From: an uncultured Pirellula sp.
GTDB lineage: Bacteria; Planctomycetota; Planctomycetia; Pirellulales; Pirellulaceae
DNA length: 64,000 nt
Direction of reading: 5' to 3'
Assembly (NCBI GenBank): GCA_903892355.1
Contig: CAITIE010000153.1
Coordinates: 62,001-126,000 of the forward strand
This document shows, in pieces, positions 1-64,000 of this stretch. The notes under the pieces are model-generated. The model was given only the letters and a program-made list of their open reading frames with translations. It made no database searches and had not been told where the DNA came from. A program made the translations under genes and the position numbers. Within the stretch, counting starts at the first letter, position 1. Every line of letters starts with the position of its first letter.

Positions 1-219
1 CATATTCGAATCCGAATGACAGCACTTCAGAAATTCAATCTGGATTTCGATTTCTCTACTGGTATTCTCCGGCGGCTGACGGACAATTTCGGTTCGACTC
101 TGCTGTCTTCCATGCTTCACGTGGCGAACGGACTTTGTCATCCACGGAAGGAAAGCAAGTGCGGTAACGCATGACGCTGGATCGTTGGATAGCGACGACA
201 AACAGCGTCTTCCTCAGGG
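1..219. other. Left-edge stretch without a supported gene
   Basis: No reading frame with convincing protein content is visible. A CAT at positions 1-3 could be the start codon of a minus-strand gene leaving the window, but nothing of its product can be read. The last few bases belong to the 15-bp repeat described next. An in-frame TAG at 190-192 limits how far the downstream desaturase can extend upstream. Confidence 0.4.
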
Positions 220-264
220 TTGAACTCCTCAGGGTTGAACTCCTCAGGGTTGAACTCCTCAGGG
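211..264 (+). repeat. 15-bp tandem repeat, 3.6 copies, at the desaturase N-terminus
   Basis: Three exact copies of TCCTCAGGGTTGAAC (211, 226, 241) are followed by a partial fourth, TCCTCAGGG. The period is five codons, so copy number changes keep the frame and give an (NSSGL)n peptide. Each full unit contains a TTG, so potential start codons recur at 220, 235 and 250. Confidence 0.95.
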
Positions 265-1227
265 TGCCGCGCCATTACCATCGTTCCAAGCCAGCGGAGC
301 ATTGAATTGCAAATCGACGTACCAGTTACCGTCAAACCGTACACGGTCCATTGGGTTTATGTATGCACGATCGTCGTTGTGCATATCCTGGCCTTGTTGG
401 CCCTGCACCCTTATTTCTTCTCCTGGGCAGGGGTGATCGCGGCCCTTCTTGGGATCCATGTCTTCGGCCAAGGAATCACGATCGGCTACCATCGGCTGCT
501 GACCCATCGCAGTTTCAAAACACCGCTATGGGTGGAACGCACCTTTGCGGTCCTTGGCATTTGCTGCTTGGAAGACACCCCGGCTCGATGGGTAGCGATC
601 CATCGCATCCACCATGTCCACTCCGATGATCAACCCGATCCGCATTCCCCGCTGGTGAACTTCCTTTGGTCCCATTTCGGCTGGCTCTGCATCAACAATC
701 GCCAGACGCATTGCCTCTCGGCCATCGAGAAATTCTCCAAGGATTTGCTTAGGGATCCGTTTTACATGTACCTGGAGAAACGACCGCTTACCCACGTCTA
801 CATCGCTCTTTTGCAAATTCCCGCGTTCTTCCTTCTAGGGACACTCATCGGGTATGCGATGAGCGGTCCGGAACAAGCGATCCGGATGGGATTGAGCATG
901 GTGGTTTGGGGTGTTTATGTTCGCTTGGTCGCCGTTTGGCACATCACTTGGTCTGTAAACTCGCTCAGCCATTTGTTCGGTTACCAAAACTACGAAACCG
1001 GCGAACACAGCAAGAATAATTGGCTGGTGGCGATCCTTACCGTCGGCGAAGGCTGGCATAACAACCACCATCATGACCCGTCCACCGCGTGCCTCCACCA
1101 TCGCTGGTGGGAAATTGACATCAGCTACCTGGAGATTAAGCTGCTAGAACGCCTGGGGCTCGCCAGTGAAATCATCCCTCCGAGACACCTGCGCCACAAG
1201 CACGCGAGCCCAGCCCAGCAGCAATAG
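220..1227 (+). CDS. Fatty acid desaturase (acyl-lipid/acyl-CoA type)
   Basis: This is an integral membrane di-iron desaturase that introduces a double bond into an acyl chain. It has the three histidine boxes of the type 1 fatty acid desaturase family: HRLLTH at residues 91-96, HRIHH at 128-132 and HNNHH at 280-284. Hydrophobic stretches lie around residues 46-90 and 195-245. The length of 335 residues is close to the family norm of about 300-330. The start is uncertain: there is no ATG before the conserved region, and the TTG codons at 220, 235 and 250 all lie inside a 15-bp tandem repeat, so the first 15 or so residues (NSSGL repeats) may vary or be untranslated. The delta-9 position is the commonest for this group but cannot be deduced here. 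It is followed 46 bp later by a DinB-fold gene on the same strand. Confidence 0.88.
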   Translation: MNSSGLNSSGLNSSGCRAITIVPSQRSIELQIDVPVTVKPYTVHWVYVCTIVVVHILALLALHPYFFSWAGVIAALLGIHVFGQGITIGYHRLLTHRSFKTPLWVERTFAVLGICCLEDTPARWVAIHRIHHVHSDDQPDPHSPLVNFLWSHFGWLCINNRQTHCLSAIEKFSKDLLRDPFYMYLEKRPLTHVYIALLQIPAFFLLGTLIGYAMSGPEQAIRMGLSMVVWGVYVRLVAVWHITWSVNSLSHLFGYQNYETGEHSKNNWLVAILTVGEGWHNNHHHDPSTACLHHRWWEIDISYLEIKLLERLGLASEIIPPRHLRHKHASPAQQQ

Positions 1228-1273
1228 CATTCGGCGTGCACTGCCCCCGGCGACTTTCCTTTCAGAGAATATC

Positions 1274-1771
1274 ATGAACTCAACTCGTATCGACGCATAT
1301 CTGGCCGGCAGTGCGGAACTGCTGAAATCGATTTGGGGATTGACCCATGATCAACTTCATGCCAAACCCGCCGACGGCTCTTGGACCATCCACCAAATTG
1401 TCATCCATATGCTGGATAGCGATCTGATCGGTACGGACCGAATGAAGCGGATCGCATGCATGGACACGCCTCTGATCGTGGCTTACGACGAGAACGCCAT
1501 GGTACACCTCCCAGGCACCTCGGAACTTAATGCATTCGCAGCCTGTGAAATGTTCCAGAGGAATCGCCAAATGACCGCGACAATCTTACGGCACCTACCT
1601 GCAGCGGCCTGGGAGCGATTCGGGATCCATACCGAGAGTGGCAAGGTCACCCTTGGGGAATTCCTCGTAAAATACACGCAACACCTGGACCATCACCTCA
1701 AGTTCATCGCGGCGAAACGATCGCGTCTCGAAGGGACTGCTCCAAGCGAACCAACCAGCAACGCTGGTTGA
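1274..1771 (+). CDS. DinB-fold protein
   Basis: The 165-residue product resembles the DinB/YfiT-like four-helix bundle family, whose members are putative metal- or thiol-dependent transferases. The visible signature is the early helix with WTIHQIVIHMLDSD (a conserved His in the family's metal site) and a late TQHLDHHLKFI helix supplying further histidines. The open frame extends upstream to 1166 inside the desaturase gene, but the ATG at 1274 was chosen because it clears that gene and begins where similarity to the family begins. The substrate is unknown. A perfect 7-bp hairpin (1753-1769) overlaps the last codons without a T-tract. Confidence 0.7.
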   Translation: MNSTRIDAYLAGSAELLKSIWGLTHDQLHAKPADGSWTIHQIVIHMLDSDLIGTDRMKRIACMDTPLIVAYDENAMVHLPGTSELNAFAACEMFQRNRQMTATILRHLPAAAWERFGIHTESGKVTLGEFLVKYTQHLDHHLKFIAAKRSRLEGTAPSEPTSNAG

Positions 1772-2058
1772 TCGCTCGCATCCGGCATCACCGTCCTGGC
1801 TATCCCTGAGCAGGACCCGCGTTGTTTTGACGCCTCAGCAATGCCCTCTTAAAATCACCAACGCGAATGGGGCCCACTGGGTTGCTCAGCCCTTTTCATG
1901 CGAGAGATTGCCCAGGGATCGCCCCGCAAAACGCCGCCGAGCATGCGGCCCTCCACTGAGCATTCGCTTTGCTCAGGGCAACAAAAAAACCCGCCGAGTC
2001 TGGCGGGCTTTTTTTGGTTGGATTCAGAGTGCTGGGAATCCATTGTTTCCGACTGTGA
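1772..2058. other. Convergent intergenic region
   Basis: No gene is supported between the DinB-fold gene and rpsI. Besides the terminator at 1983-2015 there is a 7-bp stem, CTGAGCA (1956-1962) with TGCTCAG (1970-1976). An open plus-strand frame running into rpsI has no protein-like composition. Confidence 0.5.
1983..2015. terminator. Bidirectional intrinsic terminator
   Basis: A perfect CCCGCC/GGCGGG stem (1990-1995 and 2002-2007) with a 6-nt loop is flanked by seven A on the left and seven T on the right. It can therefore terminate the rplM-rpsI transcript (minus) and the DinB-fold gene transcript (plus). Confidence 0.85.
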
Positions 2059-6795: not shown

Positions 6796-7440
6796 ATGCC
6801 GAAGTCGCGATCCGAAATCCCCGTCGCCACTGTCTCAAGGCTTGCTCTTTACCTCCGCGAATTGCAGCAGCTGCAGCGCGGGGCTACAGTCCATGTTCGA
6901 AGCCAATCCTTGGCCGAGCGACTCGGATTGAAAGATTCCCAAGTTCGACGCGATCTGTCGTGCCTCGGTCCAGTCGGACAACGCGGTGTCGGCTATCCCA
7001 TCGCGGATCTCATCATCGCTATTGAGCGTGTTCTCGGTACCGATCGCGCCTGGAACGTGATCCTAGTAGGTGCCGGGAATTTGGGCCGCGCTCTCTCAGG
7101 CTACAAAGGGTTTGATCAACAAGGATTCCGATTGGTCGCCGTCTTCGATAGCGACCCCAATAAAATTGGATCCAAGGTCGAAGAGTTCCCAGTCCAGGAC
7201 TTGGACACGCTCGAGTTCTTCGTTGCAAACACACAAATCGACCTGGCTATCCTTGCAGTTCCCGCCTCTGCCGCTCGCTCTGTCGCGTCCCGCTTGGAAG
7301 CTGCGGGTATCGCGGGCATCTTGAATTTCGCCCCGATCGCAGTCCAATCCTCAGGCTCGACCACCGTGCAAGACGTCGATCTTGCGATCGAATTGCAACG
7401 TCTCGCGTTCTCAGTCGTCCGAAATCAACGCCCGCACTAG
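6796..7440 (+). CDS. rex: Redox-sensing transcriptional repressor Rex
   Basis: This is a 214-residue cytoplasmic DNA-binding protein that senses the NADH/NAD+ ratio. An N-terminal winged helix (about residues 10-80, with SQVRRDLS and GVGYP typical of Rex) is followed by a Rossmann domain with the nucleotide loop VGAGNLGRAL starting at residue 91 and FDSDPNKIG. The length matches the family. It begins 15 bp after the lipid-synthase fusion and is probably cotranscribed with it. Its TAG stop lies inside a 13-bp tandem duplication. Confidence 0.95.
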   Translation: MPKSRSEIPVATVSRLALYLRELQQLQRGATVHVRSQSLAERLGLKDSQVRRDLSCLGPVGQRGVGYPIADLIIAIERVLGTDRAWNVILVGAGNLGRALSGYKGFDQQGFRLVAVFDSDPNKIGSKVEEFPVQDLDTLEFFVANTQIDLAILAVPASAARSVASRLEAAGIAGILNFAPIAVQSSGSTTVQDVDLAIELQRLAFSVVRNQRPH

Positions 7441-7454
7441 TCGCCCGCACTAGT
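7429..7454 (+). repeat. 13-bp tandem duplication spanning the rex stop codon
   Basis: CGCCCGCACTAGT is present twice without a gap (7429-7441 and 7442-7454). The first copy encodes the last Rex residues and its TAG. The second is untranslated and repeats the TAG. Confidence 0.95.
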
Positions 7455-8926: not shown

Positions 8927-9034
8927 GAAGATAGGCTCCGATTCCTGCAGCTCTGATCGTGGTTGGATTGGGATTGGGGGATAGGCTTGAAATAGCCGCT
9001 GTGGAGACCACCGCGACCCGTTGCGATTGATCCG

Positions 9035-11707: not shown

Positions 11708-12104
11708 CCAGGAAACGATTCGGTTTAAAAGGTAATGGTTAGCCAACAAATCGCGGCCGTGGTTCCGGCAAGGGAGACCGCAGCTTTGTTGGTGAGTGGG
11801 GAAGGTAGCCATTAACAGGTAGGTAGCCATTCATTGGAAGGTAGGTACCGCACTCGGAGCCAGCCGGCAAGTTGGAAGGCATTGGCCTAACGGCATCGAT
11901 CGACTTGAATGTTAGGAAAAACCGAGGCGTCATGGAAAGTCCATGTACGGAAACGCAACACGCTAAACCTTTCAAGCCATCTCGCTAGCTCCTTTAGTAT
12001 ATTCTACCAGCGGGAAGAATCGGCAACGAAATCCAAGGGTAACCGATGGAGAGAGCCGTTCCAGAGAGTCGGGTCATACGATAAACTAGCTTGCCGATGA
12101 AGAG
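11708..12104. other. Leader of the cytochrome operon and tRNA upstream region
   Basis: No gene is supported. It contains the 18-bp repeat at 11804-11849 and the space for the promoters of the minus-strand operon and of tRNA-Leu. A minus-strand frame here encodes the repeat as MNGYLP units but has no other protein-like character. Confidence 0.45.
11804..11849 (-). repeat. Imperfect 18-bp tandem repeat in the leader of a DUF1553 operon
   Basis: GGTAGCCATT occurs at 11804-11813 and 11822-11831 (18-bp period), and a related GGTAGGTACC at 11840-11849. It lies about 100 nt upstream of the chosen start of the cytochrome-like gene. Confidence 0.8.
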
Positions 12105-12270: not shown

Positions 12271-12804
12271 ATGTTCCGAGCCCTGATTGCCCTATCGATG
12301 AGCGTAGCCCTGCTATGGGGCCCTAATTCGTGCTGCTGCACTGCCAGCCACGTCGCATCGCTTTTTGGCAAGTGGTTTGGAACTGTCTCTAGTGGCGAAC
12401 AGTCTGCCGATCCAGGCGTGGCTCCCCGAAAATCGTGTTGCTCGGCGAGCTCCTGTCATGCAACTCAAGACAGGCCTGCGGACCAAAACGACAGCCGGGA
12501 CACGATCCAACAACGTTCGAATCAACAACGTTCGAAGGGGACATCGGTCTCGAAACCGTTTTGCTGTTCAGTGGACACCCAAACTCCCTGCGGTTGCTTC
12601 CACGCCATCGTTCTCTCCAATGAAAGAACCTCTCCTACAGGCCCATCGAAAGCCGATTTCGATGATTTGGTAGTTTGGCTGCTACCTTCAACACCACATT
12701 CGGCGAACGCCTTGAACGATGCTTCGCTTCGAAATCGGTCCAGAGGCTCAGGCGTTCTCGCCTCTCTACCACTCCGCACGCAATTGCAGCGATGGAATTG
12801 TTGA
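12271..12804 (+). CDS. Small cysteine-rich exported protein, unknown
   Basis: The 177-residue product has an N-terminal hydrophobic signal-like segment (MFRALIALSMSVALLW) followed directly by a cysteine triplet (NSCCCTAS). Further cysteines come in clusters: SCCSASSC, FCCS, TPCGCF and a C-terminal Cys. The start ATG at 12271 has GAGG about 6 nt upstream. I recognise no family. Cysteine pairs and the neighbouring 20-cysteine exported protein suggest metal binding or disulfide-rich structure. A 15-bp duplication (QQRSN/QQRSK) lies in its middle. Confidence 0.6.
   Translation: MFRALIALSMSVALLWGPNSCCCTASHVASLFGKWFGTVSSGEQSADPGVAPRKSCCSASSCHATQDRPADQNDSRDTIQQRSNQQRSKGTSVSKPFCCSVDTQTPCGCFHAIVLSNERTSPTGPSKADFDDLVVWLLPSTPHSANALNDASLRNRSRGSGVLASLPLRTQLQRWNC
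12508..12537 (+). repeat. 15-bp tandem duplication in a cysteine-rich gene
   Basis: CAACAACGTTCGAAT (12508-12522) is followed directly by CAACAACGTTCGAAG (12523-12537), one mismatch. It is in frame, giving QQRSN-QQRSK. Confidence 0.92.
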
Positions 12805-14790: not shown

Positions 14791-14876
14791 GATACGCAAT
14801 ATCGATTCGAAGTCAACCAGATTGCGTGGCGTTCAAAAAATCTTTATTCACCGATAAAAATCGAAGACCTAACGAA

Positions 14877-16403: not shown

Positions 16404-16405
16404 TC

Positions 16406-19243: not shown

Positions 19244-19549
19244 TCCAAGTTTCCTTAGTTTCATGCGATGGCCCGATAACATGGGAGTACCCGGTTATGT
19301 GCGAGTACCCGGTGTCATGCGAGTACCCAGAAGGGGGAGGGGTGTACCTGCTCGACGCAGTTGCAGATGGCTTGAGTAAAGGGAGGCTTGACTTCAACGG
19401 TAGTTGGGAAGGACACATCGTCAGTGCAGTACCAAGTATACCTACCGAACATTACCATGTTGAGAAGAGACGGCATGGGTTGTCAACTTTTCCATCCTAT
19501 CTTCCTTAAGCAATCTTCGGTTCTTTAACAGGGACTCCAAGGTCTCCAC
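19244..19549. other. Divergent region with repeat array
   Basis: Besides the 18-bp repeat at 19257-19328, nothing gene-like is visible between the divergent DUF1553 operon and the unknown exported protein. Both promoters must lie here. Confidence 0.45.
19257..19328 (-). repeat. 18-bp tandem repeat, four copies, in the leader of a DUF1553 operon
   Basis: On the minus strand the units are GGGTACTCGCATGACACC, GGGTACTCGCACATAACC, GGGTACTCCCATGTTATC and GGGCCATCGCATGAAACT, strictly 18 bp apart. Two of the alternative ATG starts of the downstream gene lie within the array. Read in frame they encode (GYSHxT)n, but the real start is probably below the array. Confidence 0.92.
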
Positions 19550-21712
19550 ATGCTTTTTCAACACCATTTTTCCGTCACAACCTACTCGGTTTCCACCACA
19601 CGCTTCCTCCGATCCGTGACGCAGACCATCGCATGGCTGATCGGATTCTCCGCGGCTTTGCACGGCGATGCTGTCATCGCTGCTCCCTGCGAAGTCTCGG
19701 AGGACGAAGTCCAAGTCATCGGTGTCAGCGTTACACCCCATCAGTTCTCTCCGAACATGCAGTGGCGACGCGCACCTAATCCAGAGCTATCCGCGCGCGT
19801 CGAGATCTTTGTTCAGAATCAAAGTGATCGCCCGATCCAGGTTCCATCGCCAATTCGATTTGACGACAAGACGCCTGAAGAGTTACTGGCTGAAAAGAGC
19901 TGGGCATGGCATGACACCGCTTCCAAAACCGGATTTGAGCTACCTGCCGGAGCTCTGCGAGTCCTGCGTTGGAATGGGCTCGATGCAGACTGGGGAGCTG
20001 GGACGGAGCATGATGTCTCGTTGGGTGCCGAGTCCTCGTCAAAATCACCGATCAATCTTGCGCTCCCACGTGTCTTTTTCGAGTCGATCACGTTTCATGC
20101 TGCAGGATCGCACGATGGAAACAATTCGATGCATCCAGACAGAATGCTCGCCACCATCCGCAACGATCTGCGGGAACCGATTCGGATGGTTTCCTGCCGT
20201 CTTTGGTTACCGCAGTCCAACGAAACGTTCCATACCCTTTACCCCAAACCGATCCAGCGTGAACTCAAACCCTACCCCGAGGATGCGATCGTTCCTGCGG
20301 GTGAGATTGGTGGCATTGAACTGGATCTTGGTCCGTTGCCACTGACGTATGCCGCGGTAGAGATGGTCGTCCGTCCAATCGCTCGCGATGAAGAAATTCA
20401 TGTTTGGGGATATCTCAAGATTCGTCGCTCATCGTTTGACATCAGTGGCGGTTGGGTCGCGAGCGTCGTCAAAGGACGCAACAGCATGACCCAAATCCCT
20501 TTCCTAAAGACGTTGGCCCAACTCTACGTCAACACGGGCCAGATCGAAGAGGTGTCCGGTTATACCGACAATCAGGAGCTGTACTCGCAGTACCCCATCA
20601 AACGATTCAACCGGATGGCGGACAAAAATCGTTACGAGTCTGATTCGATGCTACCTACCATTCATGCTATCGAATTCCTCGGCGAACCACAGTACGGTGG
20701 TGGACGTCCGGTCCCACCCCAAGAAGTCTTCGATCAACTCGCTCCCTATCAATCATGGAAGCTACCCACCACGGTCACATTGAGCGAGGAGCGAGACTGG
20801 CGATACTACGTCGGCGTTTGCGATTATCCTCACTATGACGCGTACCGAGTCATCGCCCCAGCCGCCGATTCATGGTCTAAATACGATCGCTGGGGAGGCA
20901 AATCGATTCGCTGGGGAGCTCCTCTGGAGACGATCGGCGATATGACTAGAAGCTTGCGGCAACAAAGTCGCCCGGTGACGATCGCTTACTGGTCCCAAGG
21001 AGCCCATCACGACTGGGGTGGTGTGCTTAGCCCTAGGCGTGGTTCCCCCACACCCGATGAGTTACGATCCCAAGCATGGCAGGGGTTAGGCAATGGGATT
21101 GCATCGTTGTATTGGTTCAATTTGAGCATGAAGTCACTCGCCAAATTCCCCGACTTGATCGATCCAATCCGTCGAGTCGGTCGCGAAATCCAATTGCTGA
21201 AACCCATCTTGGAACAATGCGTCTGTTATCAGTACGAGCGGCAAACCAACGATGGACTGCTGGAATGGGATCTAAACTCCTTGGTCACTCGTGACACAGC
21301 TTTGTTGGTTGCCAATGACATTGGGTACGCCATCGACGAACGCTCGAAAACATTTCGCTTCGAAAAACGGGATGGCGTTTTTTCCTTCCAACTGCCAACT
21401 TGGCTAGCTACGCCCAATGACGGAGGCACGACGGGCGGCATCACAAGCGATAGCACGACCGATGAGAACCTCCACGTGTTCCGGGTCGATTCCGAAGGGA
21501 CACACAATGTGGAGTACACCCTCGAATCTCGACAGATCAAGATACGCGATGCGGTATCCGTTGTCGGAGTGTACATCGTAACCAGGGACAAAAATCTCCG
21601 GCTCTCGATGGATACAAAGCTTGCGAGCCTTCTTCAATCGGAGCTCGAATTGGGTTTCAACCCCGTCGATTCCGAGGCCGACCGGAAAACGTTGCAGTCG
21701 CTGGTCGATTAA
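19550..21712 (+). CDS. Large exported protein of unknown function
   Basis: The 720-residue product has an N-terminal hydrophobic segment (TIAWLIGFSAALHGDAVIAA) that looks like a signal peptide, then a beta-rich region (VEIFVQNQSDRPIQVPSPIRF) and a central part with aromatic, acidic segments such as YYVGVCDYPHYDAYRV, SRPVTIAYWSQGAHHDWGG and LGNGIASLYWFNLS, which recall a TIM-barrel glycoside hydrolase. I cannot assign a family. ATG at 19550 has AAGG about 8 nt upstream. It precedes a sulfatase on the same strand (75-bp gap), which makes a role in polysaccharide breakdown plausible. Confidence 0.65.
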   Translation: MLFQHHFSVTTYSVSTTRFLRSVTQTIAWLIGFSAALHGDAVIAAPCEVSEDEVQVIGVSVTPHQFSPNMQWRRAPNPELSARVEIFVQNQSDRPIQVPSPIRFDDKTPEELLAEKSWAWHDTASKTGFELPAGALRVLRWNGLDADWGAGTEHDVSLGAESSSKSPINLALPRVFFESITFHAAGSHDGNNSMHPDRMLATIRNDLREPIRMVSCRLWLPQSNETFHTLYPKPIQRELKPYPEDAIVPAGEIGGIELDLGPLPLTYAAVEMVVRPIARDEEIHVWGYLKIRRSSFDISGGWVASVVKGRNSMTQIPFLKTLAQLYVNTGQIEEVSGYTDNQELYSQYPIKRFNRMADKNRYESDSMLPTIHAIEFLGEPQYGGGRPVPPQEVFDQLAPYQSWKLPTTVTLSEERDWRYYVGVCDYPHYDAYRVIAPAADSWSKYDRWGGKSIRWGAPLETIGDMTRSLRQQSRPVTIAYWSQGAHHDWGGVLSPRRGSPTPDELRSQAWQGLGNGIASLYWFNLSMKSLAKFPDLIDPIRRVGREIQLLKPILEQCVCYQYERQTNDGLLEWDLNSLVTRDTALLVANDIGYAIDERSKTFRFEKRDGVFSFQLPTWLATPNDGGTTGGITSDSTTDENLHVFRVDSEGTHNVEYTLESRQIKIRDAVSVVGVYIVTRDKNLRLSMDTKLASLLQSELELGFNPVDSEADRKTLQSLVD

Positions 21713-27620: not shown

Positions 27621-27693
27621 ATGCCAAACATCGCGAATCACCGATGTGCCATACATCGCGAATCACCGATGTGCCAAATATCGCGAATCACCG
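27621..27693 (+). repeat. Tandem repeat of about 25 bp, three copies, downstream of the DUF721 gene
   Basis: The shared core ATCGCGAATCACCG recurs in three adjacent units: 27621-27643 (23 bp), 27644-27668 and 27669-27693 (25 bp each). The array fills the gap between truA and the DUF721-like gene, and its last bases overlap that gene's stop codon (27688-27690). Confidence 0.93.
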
Positions 27694-36699: not shown

Positions 36700-36706
36700 G
36701 TCACTC

Positions 36707-36748
36707 CTCCGACTCCGATCCTCCGAATTCGATCCTCCGACTCCGATC
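36707..36748 (+). repeat. 14-bp tandem repeat, three copies, upstream of pyrE
   Basis: CTCCGACTCCGATC (36707), CTCCGAATTCGATC (36721) and CTCCGACTCCGATC (36735) are adjacent. The array lies between the transpeptidase stop and the TTG start of pyrE, ending 20 bp before it. Confidence 0.94.
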
Positions 36749-36768
36749 CAGCGGACACGCGATATATC

Positions 36769-42356: not shown

Positions 42357-42786
42357 AGCGAACAACCTCATTTTGAAAAAAGGTTTGAACCAGCAGGTGC
42401 TCGACAGACGTCTGTCAATGTGACAGCACCATTTTTCGAACGCATCTTTTGAGAAGCAAGTACTGTGCCAAGATCTTTGAACTGTGAATATTCACGGCAG
42501 AAAGCAGCGGGCGCTTGACGCTGAAATCATCGCCGTGCCGTGCGCACCAAAGATGCATGCGAGATGTCGAACGTAACAATCCTAACGATCCCCCCCAAAG
42601 AAGAGTGCTAGCACATTGGGGGAGTTTTTTGGATCTGTATCCGGATTTGCTTTCCCCCTGATTGACACGAATGCATTTCATCCAAACAATGCCCGACTGA
42701 AGGATCACTCGGTGCGGCAGGAGGCCGCTTTTTCTGTCTCCGCGGCAGAAGGCCGCTTTTCTGTCTCCTGAATTGGCGATGCTGCA
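42357..42786. other. Divergent region between hsp20 and the M28 gene
   Basis: No gene is supported. A 10-bp palindrome GTGCTAGCAC lies at 42605-42614. The right end holds two tandem terminator-like hairpins (42714-42768). Confidence 0.45.
42714..42768 (+). repeat. Tandemly duplicated terminator-like hairpin
   Basis: Units of 28 bp (42714-42741) and 27 bp (42742-42768) each hold GCGGC, a 5-nt loop and GCCGC followed by TTTTT or TTTT, then CTGTCTCC. Each alone looks like a weak intrinsic terminator for plus-strand transcription. They lie just upstream of the M28 gene with no plus-strand gene before them. Confidence 0.88.
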
Positions 42787-51280: not shown

Positions 51281-51293
51281 GGCTGCTTTGGGT

Positions 51294-51378
51294 TTAGGTG
51301 GGACGGGTAGTTAGGTGGGACGGGTAGTTAGGTGGGACGGGTAGTTAAGTGGGACGGGTAGTTAAGTGGGACAGTAGG
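51294..51378 (-). repeat. 17-bp tandem repeat, five copies, between operon genes
   Basis: TTAGGTGGGACGGGTAG occurs three times exactly (51294, 51311, 51328) and twice with changes (51345, 51362). It lies 14 bp upstream of the DUF1552 start, in the gap after the DUF1592-type gene. The unit length is not a multiple of three and the region is not coding. Confidence 0.97.
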
Positions 51379-51469
51379 TAGATAATACGGGAGGGTGGAA
51401 CTAGGTTTGATTGTGGAAACAGCAGCGTCGGGAATGGGCAACTCGATTCCAGACGTTTTGACGCGATTG

Positions 51470-51495
51470 AGCTATTGGCTATAGCTATTGGCTAT
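51470..51495 (-). repeat. 13-bp tandem duplication spanning the DUF1592-type gene stop
   Basis: AGCTATTGGCTAT is present twice (51470-51482, 51483-51495). The TAG stop of the gene (51485-51487 on the minus strand) is inside one copy. Confidence 0.94.
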
Positions 51496-53905
51496 TCGGT
51501 CCGACCGATCGCTGCAGGAATGCATCGCTTTGCGCGATTCCCTCGACGATCGACTTTATTGTATAGCCATTTTGCTTGGACCGCTCCAGAATCTTATCGA
51601 CATCGCAGCGGTCTGGCCGCTGCAAACCTCGGCCAAGAGCGTAAGTTAGGAGCCTCTCGGTGAAGTTTTTAGCGACAGAATCCTCCCGTTGCGACAGGAT
51701 TTCCACCAATTCGGTCGGCCCAGAAAAGGCTCGTCCATCGGCAAGCTCACCCTGCGGAGCGATGGCAAGCTCACCCTCCTTATCCCGCCAACGCCCGATG
51801 GCGTCGAAATTTTCAAGCCCTAACCCTATGGGATCCATTAACTTATGGCAGCCTGCACAGCTGGGATTGGAACGGTGGACCTCGAGCCGCTCCCGCAGCG
51901 AAGCCGACGCCTCGGCCTTGGCCTGCTCGAGGGAGGGAACGTTCGGCGGTGCCGAAGGGGGTGGGTCACCGAGTATGGTTTCCAGGATCCATTTTCCGCG
52001 TTTCACGGGGGAACTTCGGGTGGGATTCGAGGTGAGTGCCAGTACCGCTGCTTGGGTCATCAACCCGCGACGGTTCTCCGGAAGCATCACCCGAATCCAC
52101 TTATCCTCATCATTGTAGAGCCCCTGTCGACGAGGATCCTGTCCCTTGGATCCCGGTCGACGGCGGTACATGCTCGCCGGATCCTTGTCTTCAAAGGTCA
52201 CTCCGTAGAACTCCGCCAATCTCGGGTTCACGTACGTGTGCCCCCCGTCCAAAAGGTCCCGAATCTTCCCGTCACGCATCATCTCGCGACAGAACATCTC
52301 GGTCTCCCGAATCATCGCCGTTCGCAGCCGATCCGACCAGAACGGATACTTGTCGCGATCGATGTCGATCTTGCTGAGATTCCGAAGCCCCAGCCATTGC
52401 GCGAAAAAACCGGAGAGCAAGGACTCTGCTTTGCTATCTGCCAGCATCCTCGCCACTTGTTGATTGCAGATCGCTTCATCCTTCAGCTGGCCTGCTGCCG
52501 CTAACTCCAAAAGTTCGTTATCGGGCATGCTGGCCCATAAAAAGTACGAAAGCCGACTCGCGATACTAAAATCATCGAGTTGCCAATGATCGACCGACTC
52601 AATGCGTTTCTCGGTGCGAAACAGAAACTGGGGCGCGACCAAGACCGCTTGGACTCCCACCCGCACTGACTCTTCGAACCCGTACCCGGAGTCATTCGCG
52701 TTCTGGCAGACCATCATGACTGCATGAAGTTCTTCGTCGCTGACAGGCCTCCGGTAAGCGCGAGGCAGCAGCTTGTGAAAGATGCGACGGGTCGCTTCAG
52801 TGAAGCCAATCGGCTGCGATTCGGGAGCATCTTGGGACGCGGGCGTTGCAATGACCAATTGCTGATGCGATTTCGGAAAGGCGGGCTCGCCACCCTCAGG
52901 ACCTACCAAGCGAACCGACTCGATATTCAGTCTTCGATTGGGAGCGTTCCTCATCTCGGGCTCCGCGTCGTCCGAGTACTCAACAATCAACACATGGTCA
53001 CCCGGTGAAGCCTCAAACTCCTGCTTCAAGGTTTCGTCTTTAGGTGGAACATCCCACTCCGCGATGACCTGATCGTCGAGCAGCAATCGAGCTTTGCAGT
53101 TGTCCTTTTGGTCATCACCAAACCGAGCCCGAACACTCACGCTGTATTTTCCCGCAGCCAAATTGATAGGGATCTTCAAACGTTGCGAGAAGGCAAGGTT
53201 CTCTCCGTCAAAGCTCTGTTTACGAAACTTTTCTCGATCGGTTGCGATCACCCGCTCTGAGACCCACTGCGCAGCTTGCAGGTATTTCTCCATCGCGATC
53301 GGTGGCAACGTCAACACCTCGCCTTGATTGTCAAATCCATTGCCCACATCATCCGAAACAAATCCGATTTCCTTCGATGGCCGGAGTTCCATGCCGAACA
53401 GATCGCGGATGGTGTTGTCGTACTCGAATTGATTCAGTCGCCGAACCGTCACGCTCGGAGGTACCGGACGACATCCGCAATCAACCTCATGCAATGCTCG
53501 CTCAATCCACAGTGTCAAGACCTTGCGCTCTTCCGGAGTGATGGTCGCCGATTCAGGGGGTGGCATGGCCTCCGCGCGAATGACACCTCGAATCTGTTCC
53601 CACGTGCTCTCATGGGCCCGAATCTTGTCGAGGCTGTCGTAGTCATCGAACCCAACCCCTCCTTCATTCCCCCCATTCATATGGCATTCACCACAGTGCT
53701 TCAGCAAAACTGGACGAACCACTTCCGTCCACTCCGCGGTTATAGCCCGATCGGCTGTGGCCCCCGCACTCTGCGAGGAACCCGCCGCACCTCCAACTGC
53801 CGTAACTTCTTGAGCGCATAACAAGCCCATTACGGTATGCCCAATCATCGACTGCAGGCCAACGACGCTTCCGAGGAGCACAACGGCCCTCAACATCATG
53901 ATCAT
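51485..53905 (-). CDS. DUF1587/1592/1588/1585 cytochrome-like exported protein
   Basis: The 806-residue protein has a hydrophobic export segment (MLRAVVLLGSVVGLQSMIG), a heme motif CGECH in the N-terminal cytochrome domain, DUF1587 (VRRLNQFEYDNTIRDLFG), a carbohydrate-binding-like domain (AGKYSVSVRARFGDDQKDN, LDDQVIAEWDV), DUF1595/DUF1592 (LPRAYRRPVSDEEL, RLSYFLWASMPDNELLELA), DUF1588 with SNPSCAGCHKLMDPIGLGLE (another CxxCH), and DUF1585. It is a planctomycete-type multidomain protein with its DUF1552 partner downstream. Start ATG 53905 was chosen ahead of the signal; the frame is open to 54130. Confidence 0.91.
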   Translation of the reverse strand: MIMMLRAVVLLGSVVGLQSMIGHTVMGLLCAQEVTAVGGAAGSSQSAGATADRAITAEWTEVVRPVLLKHCGECHMNGGNEGGVGFDDYDSLDKIRAHESTWEQIRGVIRAEAMPPPESATITPEERKVLTLWIERALHEVDCGCRPVPPSVTVRRLNQFEYDNTIRDLFGMELRPSKEIGFVSDDVGNGFDNQGEVLTLPPIAMEKYLQAAQWVSERVIATDREKFRKQSFDGENLAFSQRLKIPINLAAGKYSVSVRARFGDDQKDNCKARLLLDDQVIAEWDVPPKDETLKQEFEASPGDHVLIVEYSDDAEPEMRNAPNRRLNIESVRLVGPEGGEPAFPKSHQQLVIATPASQDAPESQPIGFTEATRRIFHKLLPRAYRRPVSDEELHAVMMVCQNANDSGYGFEESVRVGVQAVLVAPQFLFRTEKRIESVDHWQLDDFSIASRLSYFLWASMPDNELLELAAAGQLKDEAICNQQVARMLADSKAESLLSGFFAQWLGLRNLSKIDIDRDKYPFWSDRLRTAMIRETEMFCREMMRDGKIRDLLDGGHTYVNPRLAEFYGVTFEDKDPASMYRRRPGSKGQDPRRQGLYNDEDKWIRVMLPENRRGLMTQAAVLALTSNPTRSSPVKRGKWILETILGDPPPSAPPNVPSLEQAKAEASASLRERLEVHRSNPSCAGCHKLMDPIGLGLENFDAIGRWRDKEGELAIAPQGELADGRAFSGPTELVEILSQREDSVAKNFTERLLTYALGRGLQRPDRCDVDKILERSKQNGYTIKSIVEGIAQSDAFLQRSVGPNSQ
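51740..51777 (-). repeat. 24-bp spaced direct repeat in the DUF1592-type gene
   Basis: GGCAAGCTCACCCT is repeated at 51740-51753 and 51764-51777, a 24-bp period, in frame, giving EGELAIAP and QGELADG-type units. Confidence 0.8.
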
Positions 53906-56117: not shown

Positions 56118-57989
56118 TCAAGGTACCGTTGTTCGGGATTTTAGGTTGTCCCAGAACTGCCTCGCCGATTCTTTTCGATCGGCGTAATGCAACCGCTGTT
56201 CGTCGTCTCGATCGATCGCTTCGATCGATCGCTCAAGCCACCCTTGGAAAAACTCCACGCTCTTTTTGGAGACACGCGGCTTGCCCTCGAACTCAAAGTA
56301 AAACGGTGCGGTACTCGCATACCGATACCCATCTTCGTGCGCGGTTACCACCCGTATCACTAACCATCCGCTTTCGCTCACCGAAAGCTCGGGAAACTCA
56401 CCTCGTTTGTAATGATCCTCGAGCTTGGCATTATAAAGCGTCTCGCCATTAAAGATCACATCGAGATAATCCACTTTTTCTCGAACGGCGAGAGAAACCG
56501 CGATATCTAGCGGTATCGCCTCTCCACGGTACCCTGGATGGACCGACCCCGGAGGAGAGCCGTTGACCATGGCTCGCAATAACGGCCCATTCGAAACGAA
56601 TGACGCTGCACGCTCGAGCCCCTGCCACCACGTATCAACAGTGGGAGTTCCCACAGACGCGATCGCATTCTCCGCCCCGTCTCCCTGCGATCCCCCACGA
56701 TCCGATCGGCCACTCTCCGACTCACTCTTCTCTAGCCCGGAACTTCGAGAAAGTTCTCCGCTGGTCTCTTCGCAATGAACATACACGCGATTGTAGCCAA
56801 CATGCGTATCCCCTTTACCAAATCCCGACGCTGCGCTCGGCCCTAACCTAAGTCCCGCTTCCAGCATCTGCCAGTAAAGAAACTCATTGAGTTTTCCAAC
56901 CCCGAGAGCTCCTTTGAATCGAATCCGCTGGTCGGCAGGAACTGGCGCACTGATCAGCAACGAAATTCGATCCTTGCCCACGCCGAGCAAAACACTCGCG
57001 AAGGAAGTGGGATCATCCGATCTTGGAAAGCTCAACACATCATCCCCTTTTGGGCGATTGACGTTCGATAAGACACGAACCAGTTTCACGTTCGGATCGG
57101 CGAGAAGGAATGGCGTATCGCGCGCGCCCGGTTGGGTGATCTCTACCAAAGCTCGATCCGAATCCCGAGCCGCTTCGATGGCATCCCATGCAGCCCGCCA
57201 TCCGAGTGCCGTTCCGACCGGGAGCTCGCTTTGGTCCGTATCGCTCTTTTCGTACTCGCGCGGTTCGTAGCGATGGATAGCGATGCCGATTTCCGGCGCG
57301 AGGATATCGAGGGACATGCTTCCCCAACGTTCTCCGAGTTGATCAGCGCTGCCGGTGATGCCAGACGTCCCATTTTTTGCCGCTGGATTGTTTGCCTTTG
57401 GATTCTTTACAGGCGACGCATCGCGTTTTTGTGCCCTAACGTTGGTGACAACCATGTCGACCGCATCGGCGACCTGCCACCTCTGTGCGGTCGCTCGCTC
57501 CAACTCCACACCCAAGTCACCGCTGTACCATTGCTCGCCATGCATGTCGACCGCTCGCGGCAACTCGACAACCACCACGTCCTTCGCGCGACGCTCGATC
57601 GTGAATCCACCTCGAATTTCTTTGTACTCCGGACCTCGCTTGGCTAAGAACTCATACTCCCCTGGCGGCGGTTGCAAGACCAACCGACCTTCGGCAAGCC
57701 ACGTGTCTCCGGCGATAAGCATCTTTCGGTCGCGATTCAACTTTTTGGCCGATTTCACAACTTCAATCCGAGCCGCGATCGGTTCTCCTGTCTTCTCATC
57801 GACTACCTCTAGTGTCACCTCGTTCTGCCCTTGGGCGGGCCGCGAAGGAAATGCCAGGACGAGCACCATCGCAACCCAGAACACAGTACGTACAGAACGT
57901 ACAAACGGCGCTCTTGCAGACAGGGGGCGTGCAGACAGGGGGCGTGCAGACAGGGGGCGTGCAGACAGGGGGCGTGCAATTGGTGGCAA
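56118..57989 (-). CDS. Large exported protein, CehA-like fold, unknown
   Basis: The product (about 623 residues from a TTG at 57989) has a hydrophobic export segment (VRTVFWVAMVLVLAF) and a beta-sandwich-like N-terminal region (LEVVDEKTGEPIAARIEV, as in carboxypeptidase-regulatory domains). A later HGEQWYSGDLGVE recalls the WYSGDLHVH motif of CehA/McbA-like metal-dependent hydrolases but lacks the histidines, so it may be inactive or different. The true start is unclear: TTG 57989 and 58007 and GTG codons are possible, and (ARPLS)4 from a 15-bp repeat precedes the signal. Function is unknown. Confidence 0.6.
   Translation of the reverse strand: MPPIARPLSARPLSARPLSARPLSARAPFVRSVRTVFWVAMVLVLAFPSRPAQGQNEVTLEVVDEKTGEPIAARIEVVKSAKKLNRDRKMLIAGDTWLAEGRLVLQPPPGEYEFLAKRGPEYKEIRGGFTIERRAKDVVVVELPRAVDMHGEQWYSGDLGVELERATAQRWQVADAVDMVVTNVRAQKRDASPVKNPKANNPAAKNGTSGITGSADQLGERWGSMSLDILAPEIGIAIHRYEPREYEKSDTDQSELPVGTALGWRAAWDAIEAARDSDRALVEITQPGARDTPFLLADPNVKLVRVLSNVNRPKGDDVLSFPRSDDPTSFASVLLGVGKDRISLLISAPVPADQRIRFKGALGVGKLNEFLYWQMLEAGLRLGPSAASGFGKGDTHVGYNRVYVHCEETSGELSRSSGLEKSESESGRSDRGGSQGDGAENAIASVGTPTVDTWWQGLERAASFVSNGPLLRAMVNGSPPGSVHPGYRGEAIPLDIAVSLAVREKVDYLDVIFNGETLYNAKLEDHYKRGEFPELSVSESGWLVIRVVTAHEDGYRYASTAPFYFEFEGKPRVSKKSVEFFQGWLERSIEAIDRDDEQRLHYADRKESARQFWDNLKSRTTVP
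57376..57405 (-). repeat. 15-bp imperfect tandem duplication in the CehA-like gene
   Basis: TTTGCCGCTGGATTG (57376-57390) is followed by TTTGCCTTTGGATTC (57391-57405); in frame it gives NPKAN-NPAAK. Confidence 0.7.
57916..57975 (-). repeat. 15-bp tandem repeat, four copies, before the signal peptide
   Basis: GCAGACAGGGGGCGT is repeated exactly at 57916, 57931, 57946 and 57961. In frame it encodes (ARPLS)4 directly before the signal segment of the CehA-like gene. A separate 9-bp near-repeat (ACAGTACGT/ACAGAACGT, 57883-57900) lies next to it. Confidence 0.97.
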
Positions 57990-58254: not shown

Positions 58255-59187
58255 ATGGCAAACGATTACTACAAAACGCTCGGTATCAGTCGCACTGCAT
58301 CCCAGGAGGATATCGCCAAGGCGTACCGGAAATTGGCGCGCAAACACCACCCGGATCTGAACCCCGAGGATCAGAGCGCCAAAAAACGGTTTCAGGAGAT
58401 TCAAACGGCGTACGATACGTTGAATGAACCTGAAAAACGGAAGATGTACGATCAGTTCGGGGACGGCTACGAACAGTATCGGCAGGGCAGTCCTTTCGGT
58501 GGCGGAGGACGCTCTGGGGGTGCAGGCGGTTTTGATTTCGGGGACATTTTCGGTGGGGCCGGCGGTAGCGGTGCCGTCGACTTGGGGGACATCTTTCGAC
58601 AATTCGGAGCGGGTGCTGGTCCGACACGCTCACGGCGAGCTGCCACACCCCGTGGGCCCGATATCTCGGGCGAGATCGAGGTTCCCCTACGTACCATTAT
58701 CGAAGGTGGCGAACGGCAATTCCGGCTCGATCGTGACGGCCAATTGGAATCGATTGCGGTCAAGATACCCGCAGGGATGGAGCCTGGGAAAAAGATCCGG
58801 CTGCGCGGCCAAGGGGGCTCGATTCCCAACGGCAAAGCGGGCGACCTGCTTTTGACCGTCAATGTCGAATTGCATCCTAACGTCAAGCTCGTCGGAAACA
58901 ACCTTGAAATGCGACTACCGGTCAGCCTCCCTGAAGCGGTCGCAGGGGCAAAAGTCGATGTTCAAACTCCAAAGGGCACCATCACCATTACCATCCCACC
59001 GATGACCAGCAGCGGAAAACGATTGCGTCTCAAAGGCCAAGGCCTCGTGAACTCGAAAGGCACAGGAGATATGATCATCGAAGTCTTGATCAAACTTCCT
59101 GACACGATCTCTCCGGAAGCCAAAGAGGCCATCCAAGCCTTGGACGCTGCCTACTCGAAGAACCTCCGCGATTCCATTCAGTGGTAA
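58255..59187 (+). CDS. DnaJ-family cochaperone, CbpA-like
   Basis: The 310-residue Hsp40 has an N-terminal J domain with HPD at 32-34 that stimulates DnaK ATPase, a Gly/Ser-rich linker (GGGGRSGGAGGFDFGDIFGG) and C-terminal substrate-binding domains (LRTIIEGGERQFRL, KIRLRGQGG). It lacks the CxxCxGxG zinc fingers of DnaJ, so it is a CbpA-type protein. The ATG at 58255 has GGAA upstream; the frame is open to 58138 but the extra residues are not J-domain-like. Confidence 0.93.
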   Translation: MANDYYKTLGISRTASQEDIAKAYRKLARKHHPDLNPEDQSAKKRFQEIQTAYDTLNEPEKRKMYDQFGDGYEQYRQGSPFGGGGRSGGAGGFDFGDIFGGAGGSGAVDLGDIFRQFGAGAGPTRSRRAATPRGPDISGEIEVPLRTIIEGGERQFRLDRDGQLESIAVKIPAGMEPGKKIRLRGQGGSIPNGKAGDLLLTVNVELHPNVKLVGNNLEMRLPVSLPEAVAGAKVDVQTPKGTITITIPPMTSSGKRLRLKGQGLVNSKGTGDMIIEVLIKLPDTISPEAKEAIQALDAAYSKNLRDSIQW

Positions 59188-59218
59188 AACCAAAAGAAGC
59201 GGTGAAACCAACATCAGC
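59183..59218 (+). repeat. Imperfect 18-bp repeat at the cbpA-like stop
   Basis: GGTAAAACCAAAAGAAGC (59183-59200) and GGTGAAACCAACATCAGC (59201-59218) are adjacent, about 14 of 18 matching; the first contains the TAA stop. Moderate support. Confidence 0.55.
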
Positions 59219-59258
59219 GGTGCGGAACATCGCTACCCAAGCGTAAGGACGAGCGAAT

Positions 59259-61404: not shown

Positions 61405-61430
61405 TCGCAATGATTCATCGCAATGAATCA
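61405..61430. repeat. 13-bp tandem duplication in an intergenic region
   Basis: TCGCAATGATTCA (61405-61417) and TCGCAATGAATCA (61418-61430), one mismatch, lie between the BRCT fusion and the oxidoreductase genes. Confidence 0.85.
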
Positions 61431-61504
61431 CCGCTTGTCTGTACAAGGCCCCACCATCCCTCCGAACATATTTCCAGCCTCCTTCACTACTAGGAAAACT
61501 CAAC

Positions 61505-62803: not shown

Positions 62804-62836
62804 TGGCTCCGTTCGATAAAAACTAAATGAAAACCG

Positions 62837-62867
62837 AACCGGGAACCATTGCGATCCCGGTTTTTTT
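62837..62867 (+). terminator. Intrinsic terminator
   Basis: AACCGGGA (62837-62844) pairs with TCCCGGTT (62855-62862) around a 10-nt loop, followed by a T-tract to 62867. It ends the oxidoreductase gene, and the T-tract touches the first possible ATG of the next frame. Confidence 0.9.
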
Positions 62868-62915
62868 ATGGCCCAAAGGTCTATTTACCCAAGCATTAAC
62901 AGACCGGATTTCGAC

Positions 62916-63581
62916 GTGAACTCTCAAAACGCTAATACCGTGAGCAGTCGGAGTGCGACAGCTACTGCTCGCGAACTGTTCATCGTCGAAGGGGAATCGG
63001 CGGGTCTAGCCGTCGAGCGCGTATGCAATCGTAGCCTCCAGTCCGTGATCGCGATGCAAGGCAAACCGCTCAACGCTTGGAAAGCTTCCCAAAGCAAAGT
63101 CGAATCCTATCCGCTCTTCCGAGAACTGATCGATCGACTGGGCGGTGGCATCGCGGAATCGTTCCGGCTGGAGAGCGTTCCATGGCAACGCGTAATCATG
63201 CTTTTCGATCCCGATGCCGATGGAATCCATTGTTGCGCGTTGATGTTATGGTTTTTCCATCGATGGATGCCTAGCTTGCTCGCTCAAAATCTCATTTACA
63301 CGGCAGCGGTACCGATGTGCCAATTGCATTCGGAGTCGCTGGGCATAACACGGTATCCCACCACAGACCAGGAAACGCAACGGATCATGCACGAATGGCG
63401 TTCTCAGGGTGCCGAAGACATCGAGCGCCGGCCATTCCGAGGACTAGCCAGCCTGGGTTCCGAACTCTTGTTCGAACGCTGCGTCGACCCAAAAACACGA
63501 TTGCTCAGACCGCTCGGGCCCGCCGATGCCATCGCGAGCCTCAATGTTTTCCAGCCTAAATCGCTCCGACCCGACGATTGA
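62916..63581 (+). CDS. TOPRIM-only relative of GyrB/ParE
   Basis: The product (221 residues from GTG 62916) matches the C-terminal half of type IIA topoisomerase B subunits: ELFIVEGESAG (the catalytic Glu of TOPRIM), QGKPLNAWKAS, then RVIMLFDPDADGIHCC (the DxDxDG metal site), and FRGLASLGSELLFERCVDPKTR, like the GLGEM...DP..R tail of GyrB. The GHKL ATPase and transducer domains are absent. An ATG at 62868 follows the terminator T-tract directly, so GTG 62916 or 62940 is more likely as start. It may act with GyrA/ParC or be regulatory; no partner is adjacent. Confidence 0.8.
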   Translation: MNSQNANTVSSRSATATARELFIVEGESAGLAVERVCNRSLQSVIAMQGKPLNAWKASQSKVESYPLFRELIDRLGGGIAESFRLESVPWQRVIMLFDPDADGIHCCALMLWFFHRWMPSLLAQNLIYTAAVPMCQLHSESLGITRYPTTDQETQRIMHEWRSQGAEDIERRPFRGLASLGSELLFERCVDPKTRLLRPLGPADAIASLNVFQPKSLRPDD

Positions 63582-63601
63582 GCCTGCAGACCTGCTTTGC
63601 G

Positions 63602-64000
63602 TTATTTCGCCGGCTCTTTTAACAAATCCTTCAAGATCAGTAGCGTAGCATCGATTTCAGCATCGGTTCCGACACTGATTCGCAGTCCATCGCCCCACGG
63701 CTGGTAGTTCATGTACCGGACCAGAATTCCTCGCGATTTCAATTGCTCGTAGAGCGGAGCAACAGGGCGGTCGTTGCGCGTGCACCACACAAAGTTGGCA
63801 TGCGATTCCCTGACATCAAAACCCATCGCCCGCAACTCGACGGTCATCCGTGCGCGGGTCGCACAAATCTTTGCGACATTCTCACGCAACCAAACCTGGT
63901 CAGTGATCGCTGCAGTGGCACCGGCGATCGAGATCGCATCGGTGTTGTAGGAATCCTTGACCTTTCGAAGGACGTCGATGATCGATTCATGCGCGACCAA
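63602..64000 (-). CDS. hisC: Histidinol-phosphate aminotransferase, C-terminal part
   Basis: The 132 visible residues, cut by the right end of the window, are the C-terminal domain of a class I/II PLP aminotransferase of the HisC type: ANFVWCTRND, LKSRGILVRYMNYQPWGDGLRISVGTDAEIDATLLILK. The PLP lysine lies beyond the window. It would transaminate imidazole acetol phosphate in histidine synthesis. The stop is at 63602. Confidence 0.85.
   Translation of the reverse strand: MVAHESIIDVLRKVKDSYNTDAISIAGATAAITDQVWLRENVAKICATRARMTVELRAMGFDVRESHANFVWCTRNDRPVAPLYEQLKSRGILVRYMNYQPWGDGLRISVGTDAEIDATLLILKDLLKEPAK

What the first reader, a model, noticed from the sequence alone, without database searches (positions are those of the whole stretch)
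1..64000. Dispersed short tandem duplications, about one per 3 kb, with a reading-frame signature
At least 22 loci hold 2-5 copies of a mostly 12-18 bp unit. In coding positions unit lengths are 12, 15, 18 or 24 bp (211, 12508, 24235, 28822, 31024, 31917, 41041, 41089, 42958, 51740, 57376, 57916), all multiples of three. In leaders, gaps or at stop codons they include 13, 14, 16, 17, 25 and 28 bp (7429, 27621, 29577, 36707, 42714, 51294, 51470, 61405), with 18-bp arrays at 11804 and 19257. This is what recent slippage plus selection against frameshift would give, and the two classes act as an internal control. All four cytochrome-type operons carry one. The density is far higher than I expect for an ordinary bacterial chromosome, and I know of no described element with this behaviour.
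Basis: partly seen in the sequence, partly recalled or inferred. Interest (0 to 1): 0.75.

Follow-up and report, generated by a model that had tools for sequence, protein, structure and literature searches.

The report
Bursts of 15-base tandem DNA duplications
Some Pirellula-like bacteria seem to keep copying random stretches of about 15 DNA bases next to themselves, mostly 12 to 21 bases long, which points to an unusual, size-limited copying error whose cause is unknown.

Summary
The window is from a draft genome whose nearest named relatives are Pirellula-like MAGs. All 22 listed loci exist. TRF density is 32.8 arrays/100 kb in the window and 20.7 (period 10-30) over 641 kb of the genome, against 1.0 in E. 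coli K-12, 2.5-8.8 in three other non-planctomycetes and 0-3 in the three sparsest same-genus genomes. Periods are multiples of three in 51 of 59 coding but 31 of 74 other arrays (Fisher 1e-7).

New here: (1) Perfect adjacent duplications of any length in four high-density genomes (827 kb): 4 at 10-11 bp, 113 at 12-21 bp (41 at 15), 4 at 22-40 bp. (2) Against a 93%-identical relative, 21 tandem indels per 6,633 substitutions, all of period 12-21; control pairs, 3 per 8,065 (regions picked are array-rich; two controls overlap). (3) High density is lineage-specific, in at least two branches. (4) No unit motif seen; junction microhomology in excess. (5) MutS, MutL and a PolA 5'-nuclease domain are present; Ku and Piwi were not found.

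Best reading: elevated slippage with a 12-21-nt step, then frame selection. What sets the size is unknown.

The parts
211..265 (.). 15-bp unit x3.7, upstream of the called start at 307; fewer copies in G005
7429..7454 (.). 13-bp unit x2 at the end of gene 6796-7440; second copy absent from G005 and G008
11800..11844 (.). 18-bp unit x2.5 in the leader of the PSCyt/PSD1-DUF1501 operon 7472-11629 (-); G005 has 18 bp more
12508..12536 (.). 15-bp unit x1.9, outside called genes
19272..19328 (.). 18-bp unit x3.2 in the leader of the PSCyt/PSD1-DUF1501 operon 14877-19177 (-); same in G005, a different 18-bp unit at the same place in G008
20879..20918 (.). 21-bp unit x1.9 (imperfect), coding; present in G005 and G008
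24235..24262 (.). 12-bp unit x2.3, coding, shared with G005
27622..27700 (.). 25-bp unit x3.2 overlapping a gene edge, shared with G005; longer than the 12-21 window
28822..28857 (.). 12-bp unit, coding (amino acid permease gene); 12 bp fewer in G005
29577..29609 (.). 16-bp unit x2.1 near the 3' end of the formyltransferase-domain gene 29547-30749 (-); not a multiple of three; shared with G005
31022..31050 (.). 15-bp unit, coding (PP-loop protein gene 30736-31809); G005 has 15 bp more
31917..31949 (.). 15-bp unit x2.2, coding, C-terminus of the M16 peptidase gene
36705..36749 (.). 14-bp unit x3.2, intergenic; 14 bp more than G005 and G008 (gain in this lineage)
41041..41071 (.). 15-bp unit x2.1 inside the PSCyt1/PSCyt2/PSD1 gene 38908-41685 (-), about residues 205-215
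41089..41121 (.). 15-bp unit x2.2, same gene, about residues 188-199
42714..42768 (.). 28-bp unit x2 (hairpin-like stretch plus T-run, by eye), intergenic; single in G008; longer than the 12-21 window
42958..43014 (.). 18-bp unit x3.2, coding (M28 peptidase gene)
51294..51372 (.). 17-bp unit x4.6, between the genes of the DUF1552-PSD operon 49925-54085 (-); shorter and diverged in G005
51470..51495 (.). 13-bp unit x2 across the stop codon of 51485-54085 (-)
51740..51777 (.). 24-bp unit x1.6, coding, present in G005; longer than the 12-21 window
56208..56233 (.). 13-bp unit x2 near the 3' end of gene 56118-57884 (-); not a multiple of three; shared with G005
57372..57408 (.). 15-bp unit x2.5, coding; sequence differs in both relatives
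57915..57978 (.). 15-bp unit x4.3, outside called genes; about one copy in G005
59183..59222 (.). 18-bp unit x2.2 at the end of gene 58255-59187; present in G005, absent from G008
61405..61434 (.). 13-bp unit x2.3, intergenic

Best explanation
These are local tandem duplications made by a replication- or repair-associated slippage that is unusually active in this lineage. SHOWN: in this genome and a few relatives, stretches of mostly 12-21 bp (mode 15) with no evident sequence motif stand as adjacent copies; several are absent from close relatives and, where an outgroup helps, mostly look like gains; arrays reach about nine copies; coding survivors are mostly multiples of three. INFERRED: the growing strand (or a displaced flap) unpairs, realigns about 15 nt upstream, often on a few bases of microhomology, and is extended, leaving a 12-21-nt loop that the next replication fixes. 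Further slippage expands the array, and selection removes frameshifts in genes. Loops this long are, from general knowledge, beyond ordinary MutS-MutL repair, so intact mismatch repair is compatible. What fixes the 12-21 window and raises the rate in some lineages is not shown.
For: Units are unrelated in sequence (listing of 142 arrays), have flank-like GC and no clear junction motif. Length window: perfect duplications 4 at 10-11, 113 at 12-21, 4 at 22-40 bp in 827 kb. Events: 21 tandem indels of period 12-21 and none of period 4-11 among 216 indels in 92 kb against G005; the 3 tandem indels of 3-5 bp are at the chance level of 2.4. Rate per substitution 8.5 times that of five control pairs, p=2e-5; 6.7 times, p=2e-4, without the overlapping control. 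Microhomology: extension of 3 or more bases in 41 of 79 two-copy duplications against about 4 expected. By my reading of the alignments at least six of the 21 are gains (own: 36716, L106:6383, L106:15246; G005: 35408, 55149, L105:714). Frame: 10/10 coding against 5/11 noncoding tandem events are multiples of three.
Against: Ordinary slippage should favour short steps; the near-absence of 10-11-bp duplications is unexplained. 20 of 79 two-copy duplications have no extra matching base, so microhomology is not required. At window 28838 G008 matches the longer allele in length, so that event may be a loss in G005; the rest are not polarised. The window and the two further 20-kb stretches (L105, L106) are array-rich, which inflates the rate ratio: window alone 11 per 4,294 substitutions, ratio 6.9 (5.4 without the overlapping control). 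The L054 locus of high-density G021 shows only 2 tandem indels per 1,642 substitutions against L053. 10 of 133 TRF arrays have periods 22-30 and one has 11. Some large extensions may be decayed three-copy arrays. Coding status uses my own dicodon gene caller, and a frameshifted gene tends to be called noncoding, which favours the frame result.
Confidence: 0.6

Rival explanations
1. Flap-ligation: Okazaki or repair flaps escape 5' nuclease removal and are ligated in, as in yeast lacking the flap nuclease.
For: Short duplications with flanking microhomology resemble what I recall for yeast rad27 mutants; an intermediate of defined size could give a size window. In a 13-row PolA alignment this genome and G005 share two changes in the 5'-nuclease part and one further on, at columns invariant in the other rows.
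Against: The 5'-nuclease domain (PF02739) is present, without inner stops, in 19 of 19 genomes. Of 177 invariant PolA columns this genome differs at only 3, none of them an acidic residue; G005 also has one D-to-E and one K-to-R change. G008 and G021 are not in that alignment. An earlier test was weakened by a row that is not PolA.
Confidence: 0.15
2. Fill-in of staggered nicks followed by end joining: two nicks on opposite strands 12-21 bp apart are filled in and rejoined, duplicating the overhang.
For: Gives tandem duplication of a bounded length without a sequence motif; 20 of 79 two-copy duplications show no microhomology.
Against: No Ku match in this genome or its 12 same-genus relatives. 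The excess of junction microhomology is not expected from plain fill-in.
Confidence: 0.12
3. Functional selection: the arrays are kept as regulatory or contingency (tuning) repeats, notably in leaders of PSCyt operons.
For: All four PSCyt-type operons found in the window carry one. The 18-bp leader array near 19272 keeps its place but has another unit in G008. Noncoding density is about nine times coding density.
Against: Units are unrelated and arrays also lie in many other genes and gaps, and several are absent or different in a 93%-identical relative. Weak constraint explains the noncoding excess.
Confidence: 0.1
4. Assembly artefact.
For: This genome and several relatives are fragmented drafts, MAGs where a name is given; the one-contig relative G006 is only moderately dense.
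Against: Coding units follow the reading frame, arrays have diverged and more than two copies, and several sit at the same place in G005, a different genome.
Confidence: 0.03

Closest known systems
Intergenic tandem repeats and structural variants of lake Planctomycetota (Okazaki et al. 2022, PMC9426551; section 10 read)
   Same: Freshwater planctomycetes, tandem-repeat variation, slippage proposed by those authors
   Different: They report SVs within populations and noncoding deletions at intergenic repeats. The section read gives no unit length, no coding-frame analysis and no contrast of lineages within a genus
Bacterial VNTR / minisatellite loci
   Same: Head-to-tail units of about 10-30 bp with copy number that differs between relatives
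   Different: Usually a handful of loci per genome (recalled); here about 20-40 per 100 kb with a narrow unit-length range
Prokaryotic satellites (Subirana and Messeguer 2019, PMC6749651; abstract and outline seen)
   Same: Short arrays, many in coding amino-acid repeats
   Different: Their abstract gives more than 4 satellites/Mb for only 18 of 119 bacteria, by a different definition; here about 207 TRF arrays/Mb
FEN1/rad27-type duplications in yeast (recalled)
   Same: Short duplications with microhomology at the junction
   Different: Broad size range as recalled; a flap-nuclease domain is present here

Membership tests
Bacterial VNTR / minisatellite | Head-to-tail tandem copies of a >6-bp unit | tested here: met
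Bacterial VNTR / minisatellite | Copy number differs between close relatives | tested here: met
   (a relative at 93% identity)
Bacterial VNTR / minisatellite | Copy-number polymorphism within one population | not testable with these tools
   no reads or strains of the same species were found or searched for
Mismatch-repair mutator slippage | mutS or mutL lost | tested here: not met
   MutS in own genome, open frame 899 aa; MutL in 16 of 16 genomes, own open frame 679 aa
Mismatch-repair mutator slippage | Excess of very short-unit (1-6 bp) slippage | tested here: inconclusive
   of 46 indels of 3-5 bp, 3 tandem against 2.4 by chance, but 1-2-bp indels were not tested; perfect 5-6-bp duplications as common as in low-density planctomycetes
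NHEJ fill-in duplication | Ku present | tested here: not met
   0 of 13 same-genus genomes, own included
Argonaute small-DNA-templated duplication | Piwi-domain protein in the high-density genomes | tested here: not met
   absent from G000, G005, G011, G021; present in G002, G006, G017; 16 genomes searched
Flap-nuclease-deficient duplication | 5' flap nuclease lost | tested here: not met
   PF02739 in 19 of 19 genomes
Flap-nuclease-deficient duplication | 5' flap nuclease altered | tested here: inconclusive
   two changes shared with G005 at otherwise invariant columns of the 5'-nuclease part
Target-site duplications left by transposons | Fixed or narrow length, no microhomology, element elsewhere | tested here: inconclusive
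   length varies from 12 to 21 and microhomology is in excess; elements not searched

The most novel reading that the evidence does not exclude
A previously undescribed, heritable mutational process in some Pirellula-like lineages makes tandem duplications with a molecular ruler: 12-21 bp, mode 15, hardly ever 10-11 or above 21. It has switched on (or off) more than once within the genus.
Probability: 0.33. Interest if true: 0.75.

Novelty: new variant of a known kind. Interest (0 to 1): 0.55.

Why it matters
Short tandem duplications are a basic source of new coding and regulatory sequence, but bacterial examples are usually scattered loci. A lineage that makes them several times faster, with a sharp size window, is a natural mutator for this one class and offers a handle on what sets slippage step length. 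High- and low-density relatives in one genus allow a direct gene-by-gene comparison. It also warns that gene ends and leaders in such genomes change quickly.

Tried and rejected
Detection-threshold artefact: TRF at score 50 cannot see two-copy units under about 13 bp, so I recounted perfect duplications of every length from 5 to 40 bp and aligned indels; the floor near 12 bp remains. Mismatch-repair loss: MutS and MutL present. NHEJ: no Ku in the genus sample. Argonaute small DNAs of about 15-20 nt (length recalled) as the ruler: no Piwi in the high-density genomes. Loss of the PolA flap nuclease: domain present. My first conservation test had one row, G016, that is not PolA; repeated without it it shows three changes in this genome at 177 otherwise invariant columns, so an altered nuclease is not excluded, and I raised that rival from 0.13 to 0.15 and lowered the best explanation from 0.62 to 0.60. 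Hairpin-driven slippage: predicted folding of the single-copy allele is not stronger than that of nearby stretches; it is slightly weaker, not significantly. A shared motif or mobile unit: none seen in the listing of 142 arrays, no clear junction motif. Paper searches: none of the titles and abstract openings listed (0 to 20 rows per search, often a small part of the hits; one search returned nothing) describes the length window.

Results against or weakening: the rate comparison uses array-rich regions for the high pair. Controls counted only periods of 12 or more: L053/L049 also holds a 6-bp tandem indel and L044/L045 a 7-bp one. L044 proved to be G001 sequence (100% over 9,000 bases), so the G001/G004 and L044/L045 controls overlap, and the G022 density row is partly G001. 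Left out of the control sum because they reuse sequence or include high-density G021 (L054): L048/L053, L048/L049, L054/L048, L054/L053 and L054/L049, with 0, 0, 0, 2 and 1 tandem indels. Also left out: G000/G008, 8 events per 13,762 substitutions, a lower rate than against G005, and E. coli K-12/E22, 0 per 1,447 (ratio 10.0 with it). G011 (29 kb), G021 (40 kb) and G004 (14 kb) are small samples. G005 and G000 are pooled, so shared arrays are counted twice.
Full report
WHAT AND WHERE. The window is G000:C153:62001-126000 of a 6.18-Mb draft genome in 158 contigs. A 1,209-aa protein of the window finds 24 loci in named genomes; the 16 closest are Pirellula, Planctomycetota or Planctomycetales MAGs, several with lake or pond isolate names, from which I infer a freshwater planctomycete. 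G005 (contig CAIYZV010000148, uncultured Pirellula sp. ErkenSummer) is syntenic at about 93% identity, and G008 is at about 78-86% in its longer pieces. Of 16 window proteins scanned, Pfam places four PSCyt-type operons.

THE OBSERVATION. All 22 listed loci exist. TRF score >=50 finds 21 non-overlapping arrays in the window, 32.8/100 kb, and none in one first-order Markov copy. In 641 kb of the same genome, window included, there are 142 arrays, 133 of them with period 10-30, or 20.7/100 kb, 95% interval 17.4-24.6. Controls: in coding sequence 65 real against 15-20 when synonymous codons are shuffled (so part of the signal is repeated amino acids) and 1-4 when codon order is shuffled; in gaps 59 real against 1-4.

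FRAME. Of arrays with period 10-30, 51 of 59 inside called genes are multiples of three against 31 of 74 others (Fisher 1e-7). Tandem indels against G005 give the same: 10 of 10 coding and 5 of 11 noncoding; other coding indels of 10 bp or more are multiples of three in 13 of 21. Gene calls come from my own dicodon caller, which tends to call a frameshifted gene noncoding, so the array figure is somewhat favoured.

HOW UNUSUAL. TRF arrays of period 10-30 per 100 kb: G005 39.3 (116 kb), G021 35.0 (40 kb), G011 34.3 (29 kb), G004 21.0 (14 kb), own 20.7, G008 14.4, G012 12.5, G022 11.2 (35 kb, partly G001 sequence), G010 11.1, G006 9.0, G001 7.1, G003 3.7 (27 kb), G009 3.0, G002 2.0, G007 0 (25 kb). 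Others: G016 8.8, G013 6.2, G018 6.0, G020 3.7, G017 1.0, Halomonas 8.8, Myxacorys 6.8, Ruminiclostridium 2.5, E. coli K-12 1.0. So the rise is lineage-specific. In a tree of the 1,209-aa protein, G021 (locus L054: 12 arrays in 23.5 kb) groups with L048, L049 and L053 (2, 2 and 0 arrays in 15-24 kb), away from the G000-G005-G008 clade. High density therefore occurs in at least two branches of the genus.

THE LENGTH WINDOW. TRF cannot see short two-copy units, so I counted every perfect adjacent duplication of a whole unit from 5 to 40 bp. In four high-density genomes (827 kb) there are 4 at 10-11 bp, 113 at 12-21 bp (15, 10, 8, 41, 11, 6, 12, 4, 2, 4 for 12 to 21) and 4 at 22-40 bp. Nine lower-density planctomycetes (939 kb) have 0, 21 and 2; four other bacteria (319 kb) 0, 3 and 0; one second-order Markov copy 1, 0 and 0. 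At 5-9 bp high and low planctomycetes are similar (912 and 937, 412 and 397, 57 and 95, 19 and 13, 22 and 24 per Mb). In noncoding sequence alone the peak is also at 15 bp. Orthologous arrays shared by G000 and G005 are counted twice. The window is not absolute: 10 of 133 TRF arrays in this genome have periods 22-30 and one has 11, and 27622, 42714 and 51740 in the window have 25, 28 and 24.

EVENTS. Alignment with G005 covers 91,982 bases with 6,633 substitutions and 216 indels. There are 21 tandem indels of period 12-21 and none of period 4-11; the 3 tandem ones of 3-5 bp match the chance expectation of 2.4. Control pairs, counting periods of 12 or more: G002/G003 0 per 2,024 substitutions, G001/G004 2 per 2,342, L053/L049 1 per 1,106, L044/L045 0 per 1,695 and L051/L052 0 per 898. 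The rate ratio is 8.5, p=2e-5. L044 is G001 sequence, so two controls overlap; without L044/L045 the ratio is 6.7, p=2e-4. The two 20-kb stretches added to the window (L105, L106) were picked because they are array-rich, and the window was flagged for arrays, so the ratio is biased upward; window alone, 11 per 4,294, ratio 6.9 or 5.4. E. coli K-12 against E22 gives 0 per 1,447, G000 against G008 8 per 13,762, and L054 of high-density G021 against L053 2 per 1,642. By my reading of the alignments, with G008 as outgroup, at least six events are gains, one (28838) may be a loss in G005, and the rest are unresolved.

MECHANISM. Units share no sequence that I can see (listing). GC is 0.54 in units and 0.55 in flanks, there is no clear junction motif, and predicted folding is not stronger than nearby. 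Of 79 two-copy duplications 41 extend by 3 or more matching bases, where about 4 are expected; 20 have none. This fits realignment of a nascent or displaced strand, helped but not required by microhomology. MutS, MutL and the PolA 5'-nuclease domain are present; Ku and Piwi were not found. PolA of this genome differs from 11 aligned relatives at 3 of 177 otherwise invariant columns, two of them in the 5'-nuclease part and shared with G005; whether this matters is untested. The cause of the higher rate and of the 12-21 window stays open. I commit to slippage with a long step plus frame selection; the size-setting step is inferred only.

KNOWN. Okazaki et al. 2022 (PMC9426551; section 10 read; other passages) report that lake Planctomycetota have disproportionately many structural variants and that their noncoding deletions are often at intergenic tandem repeats, and suggest polymerase slippage. 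Subirana and Messeguer 2019 (PMC6749651; abstract and outline) survey prokaryotic satellites. I saw no description of the 12-21-bp window in the listings; those cover open-licence PMC papers only and show 0 to 20 papers each.

VERDICT. A real, lineage-specific excess of short tandem duplications, seen throughout the 10% of the genome sampled, with reading-frame selection. The kind is known; the sharp unit-length window and its lineage contrast are, as far as my searches reach, new.

Noticed in passing
window 14543-14792 (-): Cobalamin riboswitch (RF00174, 78 bits) upstream of the minus-strand gene 13461-14369.
   Followed up: no
window 19272-19328: Leader array keeps its place but G008 has a different 18-bp unit in three copies there, as if whole arrays turn over.
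   Followed up: partly
L105:6243-6269 (G000:C153:152243-152269): CGAGCA hexanucleotide array with matches elsewhere in G005 and G008; two other array units in this genome also begin CGAGCA.
   Followed up: no
G000:C153:137270-137718 and G000:C11:6089-6595: Long-unit tandem arrays, about 195 bp x2.4 and 202 bp x2.5, unlike the short ones.
   Followed up: no
L145:7753-7823 and L145:19382-19423 (G002): Dispersed repeats of about 70 bp (matched on both strands) and 40 bp, in many contigs of G003 and, for the second, G012.
   Followed up: no
L250, L251, L252: Piwi-domain proteins in G006, G002 and G017 but not in the high-density genomes.
   Followed up: no
own genome sample and three relatives, coding perfect duplications: 17 of 42 lie in the first fifth of the called gene; gene starts are my own calls.
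   Followed up: no
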